This document shows positions 1-13,819 of a DNA stretch of 27,471 nt, piece by piece; within the stretch, counting starts at the first letter, position 1; every line of letters begins with the position of its first letter. Location: the IMG/VR virus record IMGVR_UViG_3300005356_000330, positions 1 through 27,471 of that record, one strand, 5' to 3'. Source of the DNA: a virus. Position numbers and translations under genes: made by a program. Below the pieces are notes generated by a model that saw only the letters and a list, made by a program, of their open reading frames with translations, had not been told where the DNA came from and did no database searches.

Positions 1-287
1 TCGTGACCTTGCGCTGGCCCGAGTACTTCGCGCCCACCGCGCAGGACGTGAAGGATGCGGTGGCGACGGCCCAGACGGCGAGCGGCGGTAAGCCCGTGAT
101 CGCGCACAAGACGGCCGTCGACTACACCTCGCGGCTGTTCGGCGTCGCCGACGTCGACGAGGAGATCGCGCAGATCGCCAACGAGGCCGACGAGGAGGCC
201 GAGCGCGCCGCCGAGACCATGGAGCGCGAGGCGCAGGCCTTCGCCAAGGCGCCCGAGCGCGAGGCCCTCGGCGCCGACGTTGAGTAA
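1..287 (+). CDS. Portal protein, C-terminal fragment (5' end outside window)
   Basis: The reading frame is open from the first bases of the window (codons in phase with position 3) and ends in TAA at 285-287, so only about the last 95 residues are present. The visible part has an aspartate/asparagine- and glutamate-rich helical end with a segment like TAVDYTSRLFGVADVDEE, followed by an alanine/glutamate-rich coiled tail. This is typical of the C-terminus of SPP1 gp6/Mu gp29-type portal proteins, which form the dodecameric DNA gate at a capsid vertex. Position supports this: the next gene, six bases downstream, is a gp7/Mu-F-like head morphogenesis protein, which classically follows the portal gene. 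The GTG at position 3 is probably internal, not a start. The call is inferred from context and composition; no catalytic motif can confirm it. Confidence 0.6.
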   Translation, partial: VTLRWPEYFAPTAQDVKDAVATAQTASGGKPVIAHKTAVDYTSRLFGVADVDEEIAQIANEADEEAERAAETMEREAQAFAKAPEREALGADVE

Positions 288-293
288 GGCGCC

Positions 294-3167
294 ATGGCCA
301 CCAAGCAGGCTCTGGCGCGCGCTGAGGAGTCGATCACCGCTACCCTCGCGCAGTCCGATCAGATCCTGCGCCTGGCCGACGGCGACGGCAGGGCCGCGCA
401 GAAGGACCTCCTGAGCGTGCTCGAGGCGGCCGACGCCGAGGTCGCCAAGCGGCTCGCGAAGATCAGCCCCAAGCCGAACGGCGACATGAAGTTCACCGCG
501 GCGCAGGCGATCGCGTACCGGGCGCAGATCGCGGTCGTGATCGAGAAGGTCAAGTACAAGCTCGACCCCGTGGCGACCGACGTCGCAGAGGCGGCGATGC
601 AGAAGTCGGTCAAGCAGGGCGCCTCGCTGCTCGCCAAGCTCGAGCAGAGCTTCAAGGGGGTATCGACCTCGCCGAACATCTTGGCGGCGATGCAACAGTC
701 GCAGGTGGTGCGCGGGCCCAACGCCTCGCTGGTGACGCGCGTGGCGACGAGCCTCGATCGCTACGGGTACGAGATGGGCGGGCAGTTTTCGCGGATCCTA
801 CAGGTGGGGCTGCTCAGCGGCGCGACCCAGGACCAGATGGTGGCGACGCTGGTCGGGCACGGCGGGCCGAAAGGCAAGGTCAGCCTGGCGGCCAAGGAGG
901 TCGCGCCGGGCGTGGTGCAGCGCGTGCGCGAGGGCGATATCCCCGAGGGCCTGTTTGTCCGACACCGCTACTGGGCCGAGCGCATCGTGCGCACTGAGCT
1001 CGCGTATGCCTTCAACGGGGTGAAGCTCGAGCAGATGCGCACCATGCGCGCCGAGGGGCTCGAGGTAAAAAAGAAGATCGTTGCGCACTTCGACTCGCGC
1101 ACGGCGCCCGACTCAGTAGCGGTACACGGCCAGGTGCGCGAGCTCGAGCAGTCCTTCCTCGATGGCGCGGGGCGCTCGTACTTGCAGCCGCCGGGGCGGC
1201 CCAACGACCGCGAGACGATCATCCCGTGGTTTGGCGACTGGGAGGAGACCCCGTCGACCAAGGCGCCCAACCCCGAGGAGGTGGCCAAGGCTGAGGAGCT
1301 GGCGCAGCCCGCCCCAGCGCCCAAGGGCGCCCCGCTGGTGCCGCGCTCGACCGAGGAGCTGCACCAGCTCGAGCAGGAGGCGCGCGGGGCCGTCGAGCTC
1401 GAGCGCGCGCGGCAAGAGGCCCGGGCGCACCAGGAGCTCGCCAACCTCGGCGACGACGTGCAGCACGCCGAGACGCTCGCGGCCAAGGTGCTCGAGCGCA
1501 TCGAGCAGGAAACCAAGGCCAAGCAGCACGCGCTCCAGAAGCTGGCCGAGGAGCAAGCCAAGAAGGCCGCCAAGGCCGCCGAGAAAAAGGCCGCCAAGGC
1601 GATCAAGGCGACCGACGCATCGGTCGGCACCAAGGCGCTCAAGGGCGAGGCGCACCTCGCGCACCTCGAGCTGATCCAGCTCAGCTGGGAGAAGCCGGAG
1701 CACTTCGCCGAGTTCGTCAACATGACCAAGCTCGACGACAAGCTGCCGATCGCGTCGATCACGGGCGCGGTCAAGGTCTCGCCGCCAGTGACCGAGCAGC
1801 TGATCAAGGATGCGCTCAGCGGCTACAACGACGCCGCGGGCAACCCCGTCGCCAACGCGCTCGCCGAGTTCAAGAAGAGCGACAAGTACCCGGCGTTCGT
1901 CGACGAGCTCGCCAAGGGCAAGAGCGCCAAGGCGCAGAAGCTGTTCGCGGCGCTGATCGCCAGCGAGGGCGAGCTCTACGACAAGGCGCTGAGCATGGCC
2001 AAGGGCCTGCCCAAGCTGACTGCCAAGCAGCTCAAGGCCAAGTACAAGCCCGCGCCGCCCCCGGTGCCGCTCGCGCCGCCGCCGGTGGCGAAGGACTACG
2101 TCTTCAAGTCGGGCGGCTCGAGCTACATCGACGTGTACGAGGGCGAGAAGAAGGTCGCGCTCTTTTTCGAGAAGACGCCGGGGGTGTACACGGTCGAGCC
2201 GCCGCCGAAGCTCGCGTCGCACCAGGCCAAGACCTTCAGCACCAAGGAGGAGGCCGCGGTGTACGCGGTCGAGGTCAGCAAGGCGATCCAGGCGCTGCCG
2301 CCAGCGCCCAAGCCCGCGGCGGCCGCGTACTCGTACTCGAGCGAGCCCAAGACCTCGCGCTTCAACCACGCGCCCGAGAAGGTCCCGACCGTGCTCAAGC
2401 CGATCAAGATCGCGGCCGGTGCGCAGAAGGACATCGACAAGCACCGCAAGACGGCGCGCGCGCACTTCGCCAAGCATGGCGTCGTCAAGGTCAAGGAGGA
2501 CCGCGCCTCGATTCGTGGTGGCGTCGACCAGGTGCTCGAGAAGGCCGAGCTGTGGCACCAACAGAAGAAATGGTCCGACGGGATCGGCGGCTGCTGGTAC
2601 TCGAGCTCGGCGGGAGCGAAGTCGATGGCTGGCAAGCTGGTCGCGCACGACCTCAGCCCCGATCACGGCGAAGGCAAGCAGGTCGCCGAGGACATGGCCA
2701 AGCAGGTCGACGATGAGCGCAGCAAGGGCGATCACGAGAAGTATTTCCATTACTCGCGCCTCAAGTACGCCGCGACGCAGGAGGCGATCGAGATCAGGCG
2801 CAAGGCGGGCGAGTTTGCCGAGCACATCGACGATGAAGGGTACGTGCTGCTGTACCGGGGGATCAGAGACGATCAGGCCGCGCACCTACGCAAGGCGCGC
2901 GAGCTCGGCGAGCACACCGAGGTCGCCTTTCGCACCGTCTCGAGCTGGTCGGTCCTGCGTGGCACCGCCGTCAGATTCGCGACGAGCTCGGGCGTCGTGA
3001 TCCGCGCGAGGGTGCATATCAGCCGGATCTTCAGCCAGTTCGAGCAGGAGCGCATCGCGATGGACCGCTTCGGCCACGGCGAATCCGAGTGGATCGTGAT
3101 CAACGAGGATCACAAAGGCACGCAAACGATCAAATCCGAGGACGTGCAGAACCCCCACAACGAGTGA
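294..3167 (+). CDS. Phage head morphogenesis protein (SPP1 gp7/Mu F-like) fused to C-terminal ADP-ribosyltransferase-like domain
   Basis: 957 residues, far longer than a typical 300-400 aa gp7/Mu-F protein. ATG at 294 follows an AAGGCG Shine-Dalgarno-like stretch. Domains in order: an alpha-helical head-morphogenesis part, about residues 1-330, carrying the family signature around 220-320 (RIVRTELAYAFN, then HFDSRTAPDS, VHGQVRELE and a PPGRPNDRE segment); a long Ala/Lys/Glu-rich coiled region with KKAAKAAEKKAAK, about 340-450; helical and proline-rich linkers; a small beta-rich segment, about 600-670; and a C-terminal domain, about 720-957, resembling arginine-type mono-ADP-ribosyltransferases. 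The ART signs are YRG with R855, an SSWS strand motif at 883-886, and E930-S931-E932, giving the R-S-ExE triad. Known: gp7-type proteins sit inside the capsid and can be injected. Inferred: the ART acts on a host or virion target after entry. The fusion is convincing by motif; activity is unproven. Confidence 0.82.
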   Translation: MATKQALARAEESITATLAQSDQILRLADGDGRAAQKDLLSVLEAADAEVAKRLAKISPKPNGDMKFTAAQAIAYRAQIAVVIEKVKYKLDPVATDVAEAAMQKSVKQGASLLAKLEQSFKGVSTSPNILAAMQQSQVVRGPNASLVTRVATSLDRYGYEMGGQFSRILQVGLLSGATQDQMVATLVGHGGPKGKVSLAAKEVAPGVVQRVREGDIPEGLFVRHRYWAERIVRTELAYAFNGVKLEQMRTMRAEGLEVKKKIVAHFDSRTAPDSVAVHGQVRELEQSFLDGAGRSYLQPPGRPNDRETIIPWFGDWEETPSTKAPNPEEVAKAEELAQPAPAPKGAPLVPRSTEELHQLEQEARGAVELERARQEARAHQELANLGDDVQHAETLAAKVLERIEQETKAKQHALQKLAEEQAKKAAKAAEKKAAKAIKATDASVGTKALKGEAHLAHLELIQLSWEKPEHFAEFVNMTKLDDKLPIASITGAVKVSPPVTEQLIKDALSGYNDAAGNPVANALAEFKKSDKYPAFVDELAKGKSAKAQKLFAALIASEGELYDKALSMAKGLPKLTAKQLKAKYKPAPPPVPLAPPPVAKDYVFKSGGSSYIDVYEGEKKVALFFEKTPGVYTVEPPPKLASHQAKTFSTKEEAAVYAVEVSKAIQALPPAPKPAAAAYSYSSEPKTSRFNHAPEKVPTVLKPIKIAAGAQKDIDKHRKTARAHFAKHGVVKVKEDRASIRGGVDQVLEKAELWHQQKKWSDGIGGCWYSSSAGAKSMAGKLVAHDLSPDHGEGKQVAEDMAKQVDDERSKGDHEKYFHYSRLKYAATQEAIEIRRKAGEFAEHIDDEGYVLLYRGIRDDQAAHLRKARELGEHTEVAFRTVSSWSVLRGTAVRFATSSGVVIRARVHISRIFSQFEQERIAMDRFGHGESEWIVINEDHKGTQTIKSEDVQNPHNE

Positions 3168-3193
3168 ACCCGCTTACGTAATGCGGAACCATT

Positions 3194-3227
3194 TTGAGAA
3201 ACGCCGTTTCCAAACTAAGATCGTCTC
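3194..3227 (+). promoter_or_regulatory. Sigma70-like promoter immediately upstream of ATG 3228
   Basis: TTGAGA at 3194-3199, a 16-bp spacer and TAAGAT at 3216-3221. Five of six and four of six bases match the TTGACA/TATAAT consensus. The promoter lies in a 60-bp AT-richer gap after the ART fusion gene, where most neighbouring genes abut. The expected transcription start falls at or next to ATG 3228, and no Shine-Dalgarno sequence precedes that ATG, so the transcript could be leaderless. It would let the small ORF and macro-domain gene be expressed apart from the late operon. Confidence 0.45.
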
Positions 3228-3246
3228 ATGACGAAGAAAGCGCGCA

Positions 3247-3525
3247 GTGCCAGTGCCACCAAGGGATCCGCCGCCGCCGTGGCCGGGCGCGTACGAGCGG
3301 GGGCTCGAGGACCTGCCCGACGTAAGCCCGCTCAAGGGCGACCTCACGGGGCCGCTCGAGCAGTGTTGGATGAACCTCGACGCGGCGGCGCAGGAAAAGG
3401 GCGCGCCGCTCAGCAAGGTCGAGGAAAGGCGGATCCTGCGCGGCAGGCCGTGGCGCAGCCGAAGGGCGCGCGAGGCGCTGGCAAGGGCGCAGGGAAGGCC
3501 GCCGCCGTTCCGGCCCGACGAGTGA
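3247..3525 (+). CDS. Small protein of unknown function overlapping the macro-domain gene
   Basis: A 92-residue ORF from GTG 3247 (GTG 3253 is an alternative) to TGA 3523-3525. I do not recognise a family. It starts with a proline-rich stretch, then a segment with a normal mix of acidic and hydrophobic residues (GLEDLPDVSPLKGDLTGPLE), and ends Arg-rich. Third codon positions are strongly G/C between about 3295 and 3450, whereas the competing frame (from ATG 3228) there has many A/T third positions and gives a low-complexity Arg/Ala/Gly/Lys string. That favours this frame as the coding one. The stop overlaps a GTG at 3522 (GTGA), a typical coupled start for the macro-domain gene. Alternatively, this stretch is the N-terminal part of one longer protein split by two compensating frame changes. 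Confidence 0.5.
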   Translation: MPVPPRDPPPPWPGAYERGLEDLPDVSPLKGDLTGPLEQCWMNLDAAAQEKGAPLSKVEERRILRGRPWRSRRAREALARAQGRPPPFRPDE

Positions 3526-4172
3526 GCGACCCGCACAAGGGCGCCAAGCTCAGCAAGGCGACCAGTCGGATCAAGCTCGCCGAGGGCGACCTGTGGGATT
3601 GGTACGAGAAGGGGCACCGCGTGGTCGTGACCACGAACATCGGCTGGCACCCCGAGACCGGGCGCAACAACATGGGCGCCGGCATGGCCTTGCAGGCGGC
3701 GCTCCGGTTCCCGGGGCTACGGGCGAAGCGCGGGTCGCAGGCGCTCGAGGCTGCGCCGCTCGAGGGCTTCCTCGAACCCGAGGGCCTGGACGTCTGGTAC
3801 GGCTCGCTCTGCGAGCAGATCGGCGAGGAGATGCCCGTGGTGGCGTACCCGCTCGAGCCGCGGATCATCCTGCTGCCGGTCAAGCCGCTGCTGTTCGCCG
3901 ACAACCCCGAGCGCTCATGGGATCAGAAGGGCTCGTACACGCTGATCATGCGGAGCCTGCTCCAGCTGCGCAGCTACCCGGGCAAGATCGCGCTGAGCTA
4001 CCCGGGCTGCGGCAACGGCGGGCTCGACGAGGAGAAGATGGGGCGGCTGGTCGAGAACATCCTCGGGCAGGACCCCGACCCTGCGCGCTTCACGCTGGTG
4101 CGGTTCAAGTCGAAGCTCGCGGAATCGACGCAGGGCGAGAGCTTGTTTCAGCACTGGACGCGCCCGGTGTAA
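3522..4172 (+). CDS. Macro-domain (ADP-ribose-binding / ADP-ribosyl hydrolase-like) protein
   Basis: From the coupled GTG at 3522 the product is 216 aa; the same frame stays open to ATG 3228 (314 aa), but that extension is low-complexity with atypical codon use until about 3450. Macro-domain signs: an initial strand with GDLWDW; a strand and loop VVVTTNIGW followed by N49-N50-M51-G52-A53-G54-M55-A56 then LQAALRFPGL, which is the ADP-ribose-binding asparagine/MGxGxA loop; and a second glycine-rich phosphate-binding loop, YPGCGNGGL, with G162-C163-G164-N165-G166-G167, as in DarG/Poa1p-like macro proteins. Such domains bind ADP-ribose and many remove it from proteins or nucleic acids. The gene lies directly downstream of a head protein with a putative ART domain, so the pair may write and erase ADP-ribose. 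The fold call is confident; the substrate is unknown. Confidence 0.8.
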   Translation: MSDPHKGAKLSKATSRIKLAEGDLWDWYEKGHRVVVTTNIGWHPETGRNNMGAGMALQAALRFPGLRAKRGSQALEAAPLEGFLEPEGLDVWYGSLCEQIGEEMPVVAYPLEPRIILLPVKPLLFADNPERSWDQKGSYTLIMRSLLQLRSYPGKIALSYPGCGNGGLDEEKMGRLVENILGQDPDPARFTLVRFKSKLAESTQGESLFQHWTRPV

Positions 4173-4203: not shown

Positions 4204-4890
4204 GTGCAGATTCAATCCAAGGGCTATCTGAGCTCCGGCTCGAGCGTGTGCGGCGACTGCGGCTCGAAAGCTCAGATCGCCCCCTTCGAGCTCGGGTTCC
4301 GGTACGGCGTCGAGACCTACGCCCAGTGCCGCTCCGGCGAGGTCACCGTCGCGACCCAGCCGCTCGAGTACGTCGCACTCGCGCCCACCGAGCAGATCGA
4401 GGCGATCGAGCTGCTCGCGCTGCGCACGTCGGGCCCGGTGGCGCTACGCCTCGAGGGCGCGCCTGCCTCGGTCTCGACCGCGGCCATCTACCCGGTCGCC
4501 GCGCTCGACGGGCTCACCCTGGCGTTCGGCGTCGACGGCCAGGCCGTCAATGTGGAGTTCCTGCTGGGCGATGCCACCGCGAACGACGTGGCCCGGCGGA
4601 TCAACAGCGCCGCGGCGCTGGTAGGCGTGCCCTTTCAGCCTGCCAAGGTGGGCCAGCTCGGGCAGGTGGAGATCGGCGGGGTCAGGACGGGCGCGCAGGG
4701 CGTGCTGAGCGCCTTTACGGGCACGGCGGTCGCAGCGCTCGGGCTCAGCACGTGGCTCGGGGGGGTGGGCAAGGGCAGCGACGTCGACGTCGACGGGCTG
4801 GTCGTGATGCAGTTTGGCCGCTCGGGCAGCGTCGGCCGAGTGGAAGTGAGCGGGCAGGCCACCGTCGAGGTGCTTGTCGCAGGCGCGTAA
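4204..4890 (+). CDS. Putative head-associated (decoration-type) protein with flagellin-IN-like module
   Basis: 228 residues starting at GTG 4204 behind a GGGGGG run. The N-terminus has CGDCGS (Cys17-x2-Cys20). The C-terminal half, about residues 100-186, follows a recognisable pattern: a beta strand pair (LTLAFGVDGQAVNVEF), GDATANDVARRINSA, then GGVRTGAQGVLSAFTG and VAALGLS. This resembles the flagellin/hook IN-type insertion. A similar pattern occurs twice in the tail sheath protein of this phage at about residues 183-333. The gene lies between the macro-domain gene and the scaffold/capsid genes, so a head surface or accessory virion role is likely but inferred. No enzymatic motif is visible. 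The structured beta-rich composition argues against its being a shadow ORF. Confidence 0.6.
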   Translation: MQIQSKGYLSSGSSVCGDCGSKAQIAPFELGFRYGVETYAQCRSGEVTVATQPLEYVALAPTEQIEAIELLALRTSGPVALRLEGAPASVSTAAIYPVAALDGLTLAFGVDGQAVNVEFLLGDATANDVARRINSAAALVGVPFQPAKVGQLGQVEIGGVRTGAQGVLSAFTGTAVAALGLSTWLGGVGKGSDVDVDGLVVMQFGRSGSVGRVEVSGQATVEVLVAGA

Positions 4891-10923: not shown

Positions 10924-11571
10924 ATGGCCGCCGGCGACCTGCTCTACAACACCGCTCAGCCTGCGCACCCCGCGCGCGTGCTCCTCCCGCCCGACGATGC
11001 CGCCGCCGAGGCCCTGTGTCGCTACCTCGGGCGCCAGGTCTTCTACGTGCACGAGGGCAGCCCCGCCGTCGACGAGCTCAGCCGCATGCGCTCGTTCTGC
11101 CTCGAGAGCGTGTCGACGAGCTGGCCTGCGGCCGATCAGCCGATGCGCTACCCGAGCGCGACGATCCTCGGCGGCGACGACGTGCAGCACACGGGTGATA
11201 GCCCCGCGCCGATCGAGGATACCTTCGACCCGTTCGACGAGACCGTGGCGTGGTACCTCGGCGAGGCGTCCGGCACCTTACAGGTGGACTTCTGGTGCGA
11301 CTCAGAAGCGACGCGGCAGGCGATCAGCGCGCAGCTCGCGGCGCTGTTTTCCCCGGGCGAGGGCAGGGGGGGCATCCTGCTCGAGCTCGGCCCGCGTTAC
11401 CTCGGGCTAGGAGGGCGCTTTTCGCTGCTGACCCACGGCCGCCAGGACACGCCGGACGCGGTGTGGGCGGGCGAGCGGCGGCTTCGGGCAACGGTGCGCT
11501 GGGAGGTGGCCGACGTGGTCGTGCGCCGCGCCAAGCCGCTGACGGTGCAGGCCAGGGTCGAAACCATCTAG
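10924..11571 (+). CDS. Probable tail terminator / tail completion protein
   Basis: 215 residues from ATG 10924. No ribosome binding site precedes the start, and an 11-bp repeated promoter-like element lies just upstream. The sequence alternates strands and helices: RVLLPPDDAAAEALCRYLGRQVFYVHEG, then MRSFCLESVSTSWPAA, a loop-rich acidic part, TLQVDFWCDSEATRQAISAQL, a Gly-rich turn, and RLRATVRWEVADVVVRRAKPL. The segment 'LQVDFWCDSEATRQAISAQLAALF' in the third quarter has the strand-then-helix pattern of tail terminator proteins (lambda gpU/T4 gp15-like), which cap the tube and sheath. Position just before the sheath gene fits. This is a context- and pattern-based call without a diagnostic motif. 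Confidence 0.55.
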   Translation: MAAGDLLYNTAQPAHPARVLLPPDDAAAEALCRYLGRQVFYVHEGSPAVDELSRMRSFCLESVSTSWPAADQPMRYPSATILGGDDVQHTGDSPAPIEDTFDPFDETVAWYLGEASGTLQVDFWCDSEATRQAISAQLAALFSPGEGRGGILLELGPRYLGLGGRFSLLTHGRQDTPDAVWAGERRLRATVRWEVADVVVRRAKPLTVQARVETI

Positions 11572-11584
11572 CCTCGGGGCCCTG

Positions 11585-11600
11585 TGGTACCCTCGCGTCA
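11585..11600 (+). promoter_or_regulatory. Repeated promoter-like element TGGTACCCTCG, copy 2
   Basis: TGGTACCCTCG at 11585-11595 repeats the site at 10908-10918. TACCCT (11588-11593) could serve as a -10 box for the sheath gene; the implied leader of about 33 nt includes the GAGGGGG ribosome binding site before ATG 11633. The -35 region shows no consensus. Tentative. Confidence 0.3.
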
Positions 11601-11632
11601 CCGCGCGAAGCCAGGATCTCGAGGGGGATCGG

Positions 11633-13819
11633 ATGGCCGGGTTCATTTTTCGTTCGCGCCGGGTTTTCACGCGCGAGGAGCTGGTCGGGCTCGAGGGCGT
11701 CTACGCGGAGGACCTGGACCCGCCGGCCCCCGTGACCGGCGTCGGCTCGGGGACGATCCTGCTGATCGGCGAGTTCGACGACGGCCCGCTCAACGTGCTG
11801 ACCGAGATCGATGGCGGCGACCTGACGCGGCAGTTCGGGGGCCTCGGCTATCCCTACGCCGGCGTCCCGCACAACAACGCCTGCGCGCGCAAGCGCTCGG
11901 GCGAGCTGTGGAACGGCAACGGCTTCTTGTACGCGCGGTTCATCCGCGCGCAGCGCTTCATGGTGGTGCGGGTGGACACGTCCGTCGGCGAGGTGGCGCT
12001 CACGCCGCGCGCGATCCTCAAGGGCGGCAAGGGCCCCTTTGCGCCCAAGGCGGGCGACGTGCTGAGCCTGACGACCTCGACCGGCGGCCCCACGGCGACG
12101 CCGGCGATCGCGGCCGCGGAGGCGATCGCGACCGGCTCGGGCGCCATCGCGGCGACGGGCTTTCTCGGCGGCGAGCGGATCAGCCTCCAGCTCGATGACA
12201 GCGCCGCGCCCCTGGTCGTGACCTTCGCCGCCGGCGATCAGGACGCCGCGGCGGTCGTGACGCGGATCAACGCCGCCGCGGGCGCCGCGGTCGCCTCGCA
12301 GGCGGGCGGCATCCTGAGCCTCAAGGGCCTGCGCAAGGGCTCGGGCGGGCGCCTGACGACGGCCGACGTCACCCCGGGCGCGCTGGCGGCGCTCAAGCTC
12401 ACCGAGGGCACCGAGGAGGGCACTGGCAACGTGGGCAACCTGGCGAGCGTGAGCGCCGCCGAGCTCGCGGCGCTGATCAACAACGCGACCGCGCTCAACA
12501 CGATCGGCGCCAAGGCGCTGGTCGCCGACGACGGCACGCTCAGCGTGTACGACGCCGCCAGCAGCGCCGGCTCGATCACGGTCGAGGAGGGCGCCCTCGC
12601 GACGCTGCTCAAGCTCGCGGCCGACGTGGAGGTCCTGGCGGGCGAGCACGCCGCCGGGGTGATTCCCGCCGGCACGCGCGTGCGCACCGCCGGCGGCGCC
12701 GAGTGGGTCACCATGGAGTCGACCAAGGTCGCGGCCGGCACCAACGATGCGCCCAACATCGGCCCGCATCTGCTCAAGGTGCGGCCGGCGTTCGACGACG
12801 GCACGGCGAAGGGCGCCGCGGCGACCGCGGTCAACGTGCTGGTCGACCAGCCCGCGTTCGCGAGCTTCGGCGTGAGTAACCCTCAAGCGCTCACCGACGC
12901 GCTGACCGAGGGGCAGCTCGACGCGGCCTACATCGCCGCGGTCGAGAAGAGCTGCGAGGCGAGCCCCGAGGCCGTAGACGTCAACTACGCCTACTGCGCG
13001 CGGCGCTCGATCGCGATCGATACCTACGCGGCCGACCGCTTCGAGCAGGTCTCGAACGAAGGCTTCGCGGGTCGCAAGTGGATCCGGTCGGGCGCCATCG
13101 GCATCACCAAGGCGCAGGCCAAGGCCGACCGTGCGCTCATCGCCAGCGATCGCGTCTGGTATGCCTGGCCGGGCTGGCAGCTGGTCGTGCCCGAGATCCT
13201 GCGCCGCGGGGCCGCGGGGGGCCTTGGCTTCAGCGAGGACGGCGTGATCACGCTGCGCAGCGCGGGGCCGCTGGCGAAGATCAGTGCGCTGCTGCCGCCC
13301 GAGGAAAACCCGGGGCAGCAGACGGGGCTGATCGAGAATTTCTTCGCGGTCGAGAAGCTCGAGGCGCCGCTCACCGCGGGCGACTACCGCGACCTTCGCG
13401 CGAATGGGATCTGCGCGCCGCGCCGCGACCCGACGGCGGGCTCGATCTATCAGTCGGGCGTGACGACCGACCTCAACAAGGCGCGCAGCACGCAGGCGCG
13501 CCGCAAGGTCGCGGACTTCGTGCAGGACACCTTGGCGAGGTTGCTCGTCAAGTACAGCAAGAAGATCGCGACCGAGGCGCGCCGCGATTCGGTGGTCGGC
13601 GAGACGGACAGCTTCCTCGGGGGGCTGCTGAGCGCCGAGGACCCCGCGCGCCAGCGCATTCACTCGTACATCATTGACGAGAGCGGCAACACGCCCGAGC
13701 TCGAGGCGGACGGGATCTTCGTGCTGATCGTCAAGGTGCGCTCGCTGAGCTCGCTCGACGCGATCGAGATCCGCACGGAGATCGGCCCGGGCGTCGTCAC
13801 CGTTTCCGAGGCTGCATAA
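11633..13819 (+). CDS. Tail sheath protein
   Basis: 728 residues; ATG 11633 is preceded by GAGGGGG. The sheath polymerises around the tail tube and contracts to drive the tube through the cell envelope. The C-terminal third is sheath-like: RRDPTAGSIYQSGVTTDLNK, RRKVADFVQDTLARLLVKYSK, a helix before ARQRIHSYIIDE, and a final strand-rich part FVLIVKVRSLSSLDAIEIRTEIG. The N-terminus has GSGTILLIGEFDDGPLN, as in other sheath proteins. Residues about 183-333 are an Ala/Thr-rich insertion made of two flagellin-IN-like units (FAAGDQDAAAVVTRINAAAG and SAAELAALINNATALNTIGA), probably exposed on the outside. The next gene is the tube protein. The family call is strong from C-terminal pattern, length and order. 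Confidence 0.9.
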   Translation: MAGFIFRSRRVFTREELVGLEGVYAEDLDPPAPVTGVGSGTILLIGEFDDGPLNVLTEIDGGDLTRQFGGLGYPYAGVPHNNACARKRSGELWNGNGFLYARFIRAQRFMVVRVDTSVGEVALTPRAILKGGKGPFAPKAGDVLSLTTSTGGPTATPAIAAAEAIATGSGAIAATGFLGGERISLQLDDSAAPLVVTFAAGDQDAAAVVTRINAAAGAAVASQAGGILSLKGLRKGSGGRLTTADVTPGALAALKLTEGTEEGTGNVGNLASVSAAELAALINNATALNTIGAKALVADDGTLSVYDAASSAGSITVEEGALATLLKLAADVEVLAGEHAAGVIPAGTRVRTAGGAEWVTMESTKVAAGTNDAPNIGPHLLKVRPAFDDGTAKGAAATAVNVLVDQPAFASFGVSNPQALTDALTEGQLDAAYIAAVEKSCEASPEAVDVNYAYCARRSIAIDTYAADRFEQVSNEGFAGRKWIRSGAIGITKAQAKADRALIASDRVWYAWPGWQLVVPEILRRGAAGGLGFSEDGVITLRSAGPLAKISALLPPEENPGQQTGLIENFFAVEKLEAPLTAGDYRDLRANGICAPRRDPTAGSIYQSGVTTDLNKARSTQARRKVADFVQDTLARLLVKYSKKIATEARRDSVVGETDSFLGGLLSAEDPARQRIHSYIIDESGNTPELEADGIFVLIVKVRSLSSLDAIEIRTEIGPGVVTVSEAA

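What the first reader, a model, noticed from the sequence alone, without database searches (positions are those of the whole stretch)
2450..3167. ADP-ribosyltransferase-like domain fused to the C-terminus of a 957-aa head morphogenesis protein
Seen: R855 in YRG, SSWS at 883-886 and E930-S931-E932 occur in the right order and spacing for an R-S-ExE mono-ADP-ribosyltransferase, at the end of a gp7/Mu-F-like head protein about 600 residues longer than usual. Known: phage T4 packages ARTs (Alt) in the head and injects them to modify host RNA polymerase; gp7-type proteins are minor internal head proteins, and some Firmicute phages carry gp7-ART fusions. Inferred: this phage delivers an ART as part of a structural protein, with an arginine-type ExE motif, possibly after cleavage in the Ala/Lys-rich linker.
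Basis: partly seen in the sequence, partly recalled or inferred. Interest (0 to 1): 0.82.

Follow-up and report, generated by a model that had tools for sequence, protein, structure and literature searches.

The report
Phage head enzyme with eraser gene
A phage head protein carries a probable host-modifying ADP-ribosyltransferase at its tail end, and the next genes look like its antidotes: a small protein and an ADP-ribose-removing enzyme of the DarG type.

Summary
In detail: P0001 (294-3167, 957 aa) has R855, SSWS 883-886 and E930-S-E932. Its N-terminal third is a MuF/gp7-type head protein; tail-less relatives have about 330-390 residues. The ART reading rests on motif and context: no family or PDB sequence match, a leave-one-out profile misses it, AlphaFold2 was uninformative. 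For it: homologous carriers hold R-S-E ARTs at the same place, one passing Pfam PF01129 and PF03496, and the motif pattern matches only these proteins among 4187 ORFs.

Next come a 92-aa ORF (3247-3525) and a macro domain gene (about 3522-4172) whose family matches DarG structures. Such a macro gene follows 6 of 10 ART-tailed MuF genes and 0 of 58 others. The small ORF's family follows the ART type. One such cassette sits on a different MuF scaffold.

MuF-ART fusions are known; the macro partner was not found in print by my searches. A new variant of MuF polymorphic toxins; activity, packaging, cleavage and lysogeny remain open.

The parts
3..287 (+). C-terminal end of a portal-like protein, upstream neighbour
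   Evidence: phrog_64 portal, E 0.0035
294..1247 (+). MuF/gp7-type head-protein part (residues 1-318) of the 957-aa protein
   Evidence: phrog_595 E 4.6e-13, phrog_4728, phrog_115, phrog_2468; TIGR01641 E 5.5e-5 below cut-off; aligned relatives L041 29.5 bits (cut-off 29.6) and L088 31.7 bits for PF04233
1248..2105 (+). Ala/Lys/Glu-rich linker (residues 319-604)
   Evidence: sequence
2106..2297 (+). short segment YIDVY...EVSKAIQAL (residues 605-668) shared with L002
   Evidence: BLASTP 31% over 116 aa, E 4e-8
2451..3167 (+). C-terminal probable R-S-E-type ADP-ribosyltransferase domain; core 2823-3164; R855 at 2856-2858, SSWS at 2940-2951, ExE at 3081-3089
   Evidence: motif, same place as accepted ARTs in homologous carriers; not found by profiles, fold not predicted
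3194..3221 (+). promoter-like site (9 of 12 consensus) before the two downstream ORFs
   Evidence: 1 found, 0.1 expected; weak
3247..3525 (+). small ORF, 92 aa, candidate cognate immunity/inhibitor protein
   Evidence: GC3 0.87 against 0.60 in the overlapping frame of ORF 3228; position as in L002, L010, L012, L024
3522..4172 (+). macro domain gene (probable start GTG 3522, overlapping the small ORF's stop; the mechanical ORF starts at 3228), candidate ADP-ribosyl hydrolase
   Evidence: phrog_335; profile A12 to PDB 5m3i E 6e-6, 5m31 3e-5, 7omu 0.004; TTN, NNMGAG, PVKP, GCGNGG motifs
4204..4890 (+). conserved gene that bounds the cassette downstream
   Evidence: HMM scan across loci, found downstream of MuF in most carriers

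Best explanation
294-4172 is a capsid-borne effector cassette of the MuF polymorphic-toxin kind. The MuF part puts the protein into the head during assembly (proposed for the family, not shown here). The C-terminal domain is an R-S-E-type mono-ADP-ribosyltransferase that goes into the next cell with the DNA and modifies host protein there (inferred). In the producing cell its activity is held down twice: by a small protein specific for the ART type, and by a DarG-like macro domain enzyme that removes ADP-ribose from the targets (inferred from gene association). Only the writer is tied to the head protein, so a newly entered cell would meet the writer before the erasers are made. Shown: architecture, motif, macro family, association of macro with ART tails, tracking of small-ORF family with ART type, one occurrence of the cassette on another MuF scaffold. 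Not shown: any activity, packaging, target, immunity.
For: MuF part. ART: motif; L010, L012, L041 and L042 (phage A1432) recover each other in leave-one-out profiles, E 1e-4 to 4e-16, and L042 passes PF01129 (46.9 against 22.3 bits) and PF03496 (46.3 against 23.4). Macro; the lysine of the PVKP motif (invariant lysine, 7 of 7 aligned) aligns with the FPTK lysine of DarG 5m3i, which I equate with K80 of Taq DarG, needed for activity (PMC5179494, passages). Association: macro directly downstream in 6 of 10 ART carriers, 0 of 58 others, Fisher 1.9e-6; a seventh, L017, has it about 8.3 kb downstream, still before the conserved gene. Small ORFs: one family in L002, L017, L024 (seeds) and L005 at E 5e-4; another in L010 and L012; neither elsewhere in the frames searched. 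L128, found by macro alone, has another MuF (PF04233 66.8 bits) with the same C-terminal half as L002 (32% over 559 aa), the same small family and macro. Precedent: Bxa, a MuF-ART with an ADP-ribosyl hydrolase and a binding immunity protein (PMC11699363, passages).
Against: The window's ART is not recovered by a profile of the other five, hhalign finds nothing, no Pfam/NCBIfam/PADLOC/PDB sequence match, and the AlphaFold2 models are too poor to use. 4 of the 10 ART carriers have no such macro gene next door (L005, L017, L041, L042); Pan1 (L004), outside the count, has none in its 16.6-kb stretch. The window's small ORF has no relative found (only the other small families were used as queries) and its frame call rests on GC3. 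The loci are related to each other, so Fisher's p is too small. The macro profile was built from MuF-ART neighbours, so other hydrolases elsewhere would be missed.
Confidence: 0.66

Rival explanations
1. The macro protein is counter-defence: it erases ADP-ribose that host systems such as DarTG put on DNA or protein, and its place behind the MuF-ART gene is a matter of a shared accessory slot.
For: Phages do counter DarTG (PMC11481870, passages); macro domains occur in 41% of myoviruses surveyed and are read there as countering host signals (PMC9503650, passages); the nearest solved relatives are DarG; in L017 the gene lies in a long accessory stretch.
Against: 0 of 58 MuF loci without ART tail have it, against 6 of 10 with one; L128 carries ART tail, small ORF and macro together on another scaffold.
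Confidence: 0.2
2. The C-terminal domain is an Alt-like hijacking enzyme (host RNA polymerase or translation) that helps this phage; macro and small protein only tune it, and no toxin function exists.
For: T4 Alt is packaged and modifies RNA polymerase; many phage ARTs of the Alt/VIP2 class are fused to MuF (PMC9503650, section 27; PMC5512222, passages). No integrase or resolvase family match in 9 related records.
Against: An ADP-ribose eraser and a type-specific small protein next door are not part of the T4 Alt setting as described in the passages read; the records are fragments, so lifestyle is open.
Confidence: 0.3
3. The C-terminal domain is not an ART; the motif is a coincidence in a structural or DNA-binding extension.
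For: No profile or fold evidence for this very sequence.
Against: Motif order, spacing and place equal those of accepted ARTs in homologous carriers, and the macro partner is seen only with ART tails.
Confidence: 0.13

Closest known systems
MuF polymorphic toxins of temperate phages (Jamet 2017, PMC5576092)
   Same: MuF N-terminus, variable C-terminal enzyme, small ORF right behind; 14% of their 191 were putative ARTs (passages)
   Different: theirs were found in temperate phages and prophages; here fragments of uncultured, contractile-tailed phages with lifestyle unknown, with a macro domain gene as extra partner
Bxa / BAH / Bsi of a Bacteroides prophage (PMC11699363)
   Same: MuF-ART with an enzyme that removes ADP-ribose and a second, non-enzymatic small immunity protein (passages)
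   Different: the eraser there is ARH1-like, here a DarG-like macro domain; no sequence link of the ARTs was tested
DarTG toxin-antitoxin system
   Same: writer/eraser pair; macro family matches DarG structures and keeps the key lysine
   Different: the writer here is tied to a head protein and has the R-S-ExE motif (another, H-type, tail in L002, L024, L128); no DarT match
Alt/VIP2 and N4-type ARTs fused to MuF (Iyer 2022, PMC9503650)
   Same: head-delivered ART as MuF fusion
   Different: the passages and section 27 read name no MuF-ART plus macro pair
Imm-ARG with R-S-E toxins (Zhang 2012, PMC3482391)
   Same: enzymatic immunity by removal of ADP-ribose, for R-S-E ARTs (passages)
   Different: ADP-ribosylglycohydrolase domain; 'Macro' as a whole word does not occur in the held text

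Membership tests
R-S-E clade ADP-ribosyltransferase | R, S-T-S-type and ExE motifs in order | tested here: met
R-S-E clade ADP-ribosyltransferase | match to a family profile (PF01129, PF03496) or to the carriers' ART profile | tested here: not met
   met by L042
R-S-E clade ADP-ribosyltransferase | split NAD-binding ART fold | tested here: inconclusive
   pLDDT 37 and 46
R-S-E clade ADP-ribosyltransferase | NAD-dependent transfer | not testable with these tools
   needs assay
MuF polymorphic toxin | MuF domain at the N-terminus | tested here: met
   PHROG head families, PF04233 reached by relative L088 and nearly by L041; P0001 itself has no PF04233 match
MuF polymorphic toxin | same N-terminus with different C-terminal domains in relatives | tested here: met
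MuF polymorphic toxin | small ORF (<150 aa) right downstream | tested here: met
   3247-3525, GC3 0.87
MuF polymorphic toxin | temperate phage | tested here: inconclusive
   no PF00589 or PF00239 match in 9 of 9 fragments
MuF polymorphic toxin | toxicity relieved by neighbour | not testable with these tools
   needs expression test
DarG-type macro domain | sequence match to DarG macrodomains | tested here: met
   profile A12, E 6e-6 and 3e-5; NCBIfam DarG model E 0.062, below cut-off; no Pfam match
DarG-type macro domain | catalytic lysine K80 | tested here: met
   lysine of PVKP invariant in 7 of 7, aligned; residue role from PMC5179494 (passages)
DarTG system | DarT-type writer next to it | tested here: not met
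   no DarT/DUF4433 match for the window protein in Pfam, NCBIfam or PADLOC; motif is R-S-ExE

The most novel reading that the evidence does not exclude
A portable writer/eraser cassette for capsid delivery: an ART of either of two kinds fused to a head protein, an inhibitor specific for that ART, and one DarG-like macro eraser common to all, which moves as a unit between unrelated MuF scaffolds. Because only the writer is tied to the head, it would tell producing cells (protected) from newly entered ones (hit): a toxin-antitoxin logic split between virion and factory.
Probability: 0.42. Interest if true: 0.78.

Novelty: new variant of a known kind. Interest (0 to 1): 0.6.

Why it matters
It would extend MuF toxins to contractile-tailed environmental phages and add a second enzymatic antidote fold (macro) beside the known ARH/ARG type. 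It offers a clean test of a standing question, namely what capsid-delivered ADP-ribosyltransferases are for: with writer, eraser and small protein in one stretch, toxicity, rescue and target can be measured in laboratory strains.

Tried and rejected
Searches for relatives of the window's C-terminal domain found none: viral contigs, phages, plasmids (one weak hit E 0.07, annotated GIY-YIG, not followed), 398 genomes of the phylum of G021, and G020 alone. The single-protein scan with the N-terminal third found none; only the alignment-based scans did. AlphaFold2 with one sequence and with five failed; a Foldseek run on the second model gave no match under E 0.001 and is meaningless at that confidence. 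hhalign of A7 against the window: nothing. BLASTP did not list the N-terminal similarity of P0001 and P0003; a Smith-Waterman alignment showed it. Alignments A4 and A10 misplaced the ART motifs and were not used further. Rejected: 3228 as the true start of the macro gene (3228-3521 in that frame has GC3 0.60). Rejected: macro genes of L030, L031, L033, L034, L035, L036, L039, L127 and L134 as part of this system; they lie in other surroundings.

Rows dropped before the 6 of 10 / 0 of 58 count: duplicates by the last 150 residues, and the carriers with less than 1 kb downstream (L014, L016, L046, L047, L100, L114). L046 is ART-tailed but cut at the contig end. Of 227 confirmed relatives the tool returned 80. 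Pan1 (L004) and L128 are not in the count, as the A9 profile did not match them at the cut-off used. The class of a tail was set by profiles A6 and A8 (built from members) or by a HExxH pattern, so 'other-long' (12) is a mixed class; some of it also holds HExxH by eye.

Full report
Observation. The ORF 294-3167 encodes 957 aa. The window is a 27,471-base virus record. Neighbours by PHROG: portal end upstream, scaffold-like, major-head-like, tail sheath (E 4e-8) and tape measure proteins downstream, so a contractile-tailed phage fragment.

The carrier. The N-terminal part matches PHROG head families, best E 4.6e-13; TIGR01641 (SPP1 gp7) is below its cut-off. A two-row alignment of the window with L002 brought 18 loci from IMG/VR, and a 17-row alignment brought 80 of 227 confirmed ones. 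In this family the N-terminal part is conserved (RYWAERIVRTE, PPxRPNDRE) and the rest is not: some members stop after about 330-390 residues, the closest relative found, L043 (64% identity), after 417 with only a charged end, and others carry long tails. By reading and by Pfam the tails include HExxH peptidase-like domains, a C39 peptidase (L115, PF03412 28 bits against 22), a weak PI3/4-kinase-like match (L055, below cut-off), and two kinds of ART.

The ART. Tails of L010, L011, L012, L041 and L042 show the R-S-ExE order. Leave-one-out profiles recover L010, L012, L041 and L042 (E 1e-4 to 4e-16), L011 at E 12 with the core profile and not with the longer one, and not the window. L042, from Stenotrophomonas phage A1432 (annotated 'hypothetical protein' behind the portal), passes PF04233, PF01129 and PF03496. 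So the class is secure for those carriers and only motif-deep for the window and L011. The motif pattern matched 15 of 4187 frames, all of them MuF-ART copies, and 5 of 200,000 shuffles, with the caveat that it was widened to admit the window. AlphaFold2 gave pLDDT 37 and 46. L002, L005, L017, L024 and Pan1 (L004) carry another tail with conserved H, TGGxD and NE; I call it H-type and take it for an ART of the H-Y-E clade by resemblance only, since no ART profile match was obtained.

The neighbours. P0002 (3228-4172) matches phrog_335 'phosphatase'. With seven relatives aligned the profile finds three PDB sequences up to E 1: 5m3i, 5m31/5m3e and 7omu. PMC5179494 (passages) names the first entries as DarG macrodomains of M. 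tuberculosis and T. aquaticus and shows that K80A is inactive; H82 and W83 in that text place K80 as the first lysine of PTKKHW, and the 5m3i alignment pairs the same FPTK lysine with our PVKP lysine. Pfam gives no match for this gene. The frame from 3228 to 3521 has GC3 0.60, whereas the overlapping ORF 3247-3525 has 0.87 and 3522-4172 has 0.95. I therefore read three genes: MuF-ART, a 92-aa ORF, and macro from GTG 3522. A promoter-like site lies at 3194-3221.

The association. Among 68 distinct carriers with at least 1 kb downstream, a macro gene is within the stretch held for 6 of 10 ART carriers (window, L002, L010, L011, L012, L024; 55-373 bases after the MuF stop) and 0 of 58 others (35 short, 23 with other tails) (Fisher 1.9e-6). 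Record-wide, 8 of 21 records have the macro family, among them that of L017, about 8.3 kb downstream. L005 and L041 have none in the record or genome held. A1432 has none in the 10.5 kb fetched but an annotated COG3236 gene (NADAR-type by recall), the third ORF on. Small ORFs sit behind the ART tail: L002, L017 and L024 share a family (43% and 25% identity), L005 matches its profile at E 5e-4; L010 and L012 share another (44%). L011 also has an open frame there. L128 and L129, found through macro alone, have a MuF protein that the A9 profile does not match but which passes PF04233 at 66.8 bits behind a PF06381 portal; its C-terminal half is 32% identical to that of L002 over 559 residues, with nothing but short chance stretches elsewhere, and the small ORF (E 8e-27) and macro follow. 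This is the best evidence that tail, small ORF and macro travel together, and it concerns the H-type tail, not the window's.

Known ground. MuF toxins and their small downstream ORFs: PMC5576092 (passages). MuF-ART fusions in phages: PMC9503650 (passages and section 27) and PMC5512222 (passages). Bxa with an ARH1-like hydrolase and a second immunity protein: PMC11699363 (passages). Imm-ARG with R-S-E ARTs: PMC3482391 (passages). Searches for MuF with macrodomain, and for polymorphic toxin with macro domain, listed two papers each; PMC9503650 is in both, the others were seen only as listings. None of what I read describes a MuF-ART with a macro partner; most subscription papers are not in that library. 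That a macrodomain can act on arginine-linked ADP-ribose is stated in the title of PMC10951314 (listing only), so an R-S-ExE writer and a macro eraser are compatible.

Verdict. A new variant of a known kind: MuF polymorphic effector with a probable R-S-E ART, a candidate inhibitor and a DarG-like eraser. The ART step for this sequence, the toxin role, packaging and immunity are inferences. Lifestyle is open: no integrase or resolvase family in 9 of 9 fragments, which shows little.

Noticed in passing
L051, L054, L065, L066, L068, L073, L084, L087, L088, L108, L117, L120: MuF carriers of the same family with HExxH zinc-peptidase-like C-terminal tails, the commonest cargo seen.
   Followed up: partly
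L115 6902-8242: MuF carrier with a C39-type cysteine peptidase tail (PF03412 28 bits, cut-off 22).
   Followed up: partly
L012 7851-10682, L041 6782-10036, L055 6833-9544: Kinase-like stretch (HipA_C in L012 and PI3/4-kinase in L055, both below cut-off; L041 by eye) in the head protein, in L012 and L041 followed by an ART.
   Followed up: partly
L042 6763-7260 (phage A1432): A COG3236 gene, the third ORF behind the MuF-ART gene, opposite strand; perhaps another ADP-ribose-processing partner in place of macro.
   Followed up: no
L030, L031, L033, L034, L036, L134: A related macro gene in large phage records lies among glycosyltransferase- and sulfotransferase-like ORFs (named by eye), with no MuF match nearby.
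   Followed up: partly
window 2451-3167: GC3 is 0.87 in the ART end against 0.92-0.96 in the earlier 600-base sections of the gene, as if the ART end were a later acquisition.
   Followed up: no
window 11324-13663 (-) and similar: Very long open frames on the minus strand mirror high-GC coding on the plus strand and need not be genes.
   Followed up: no
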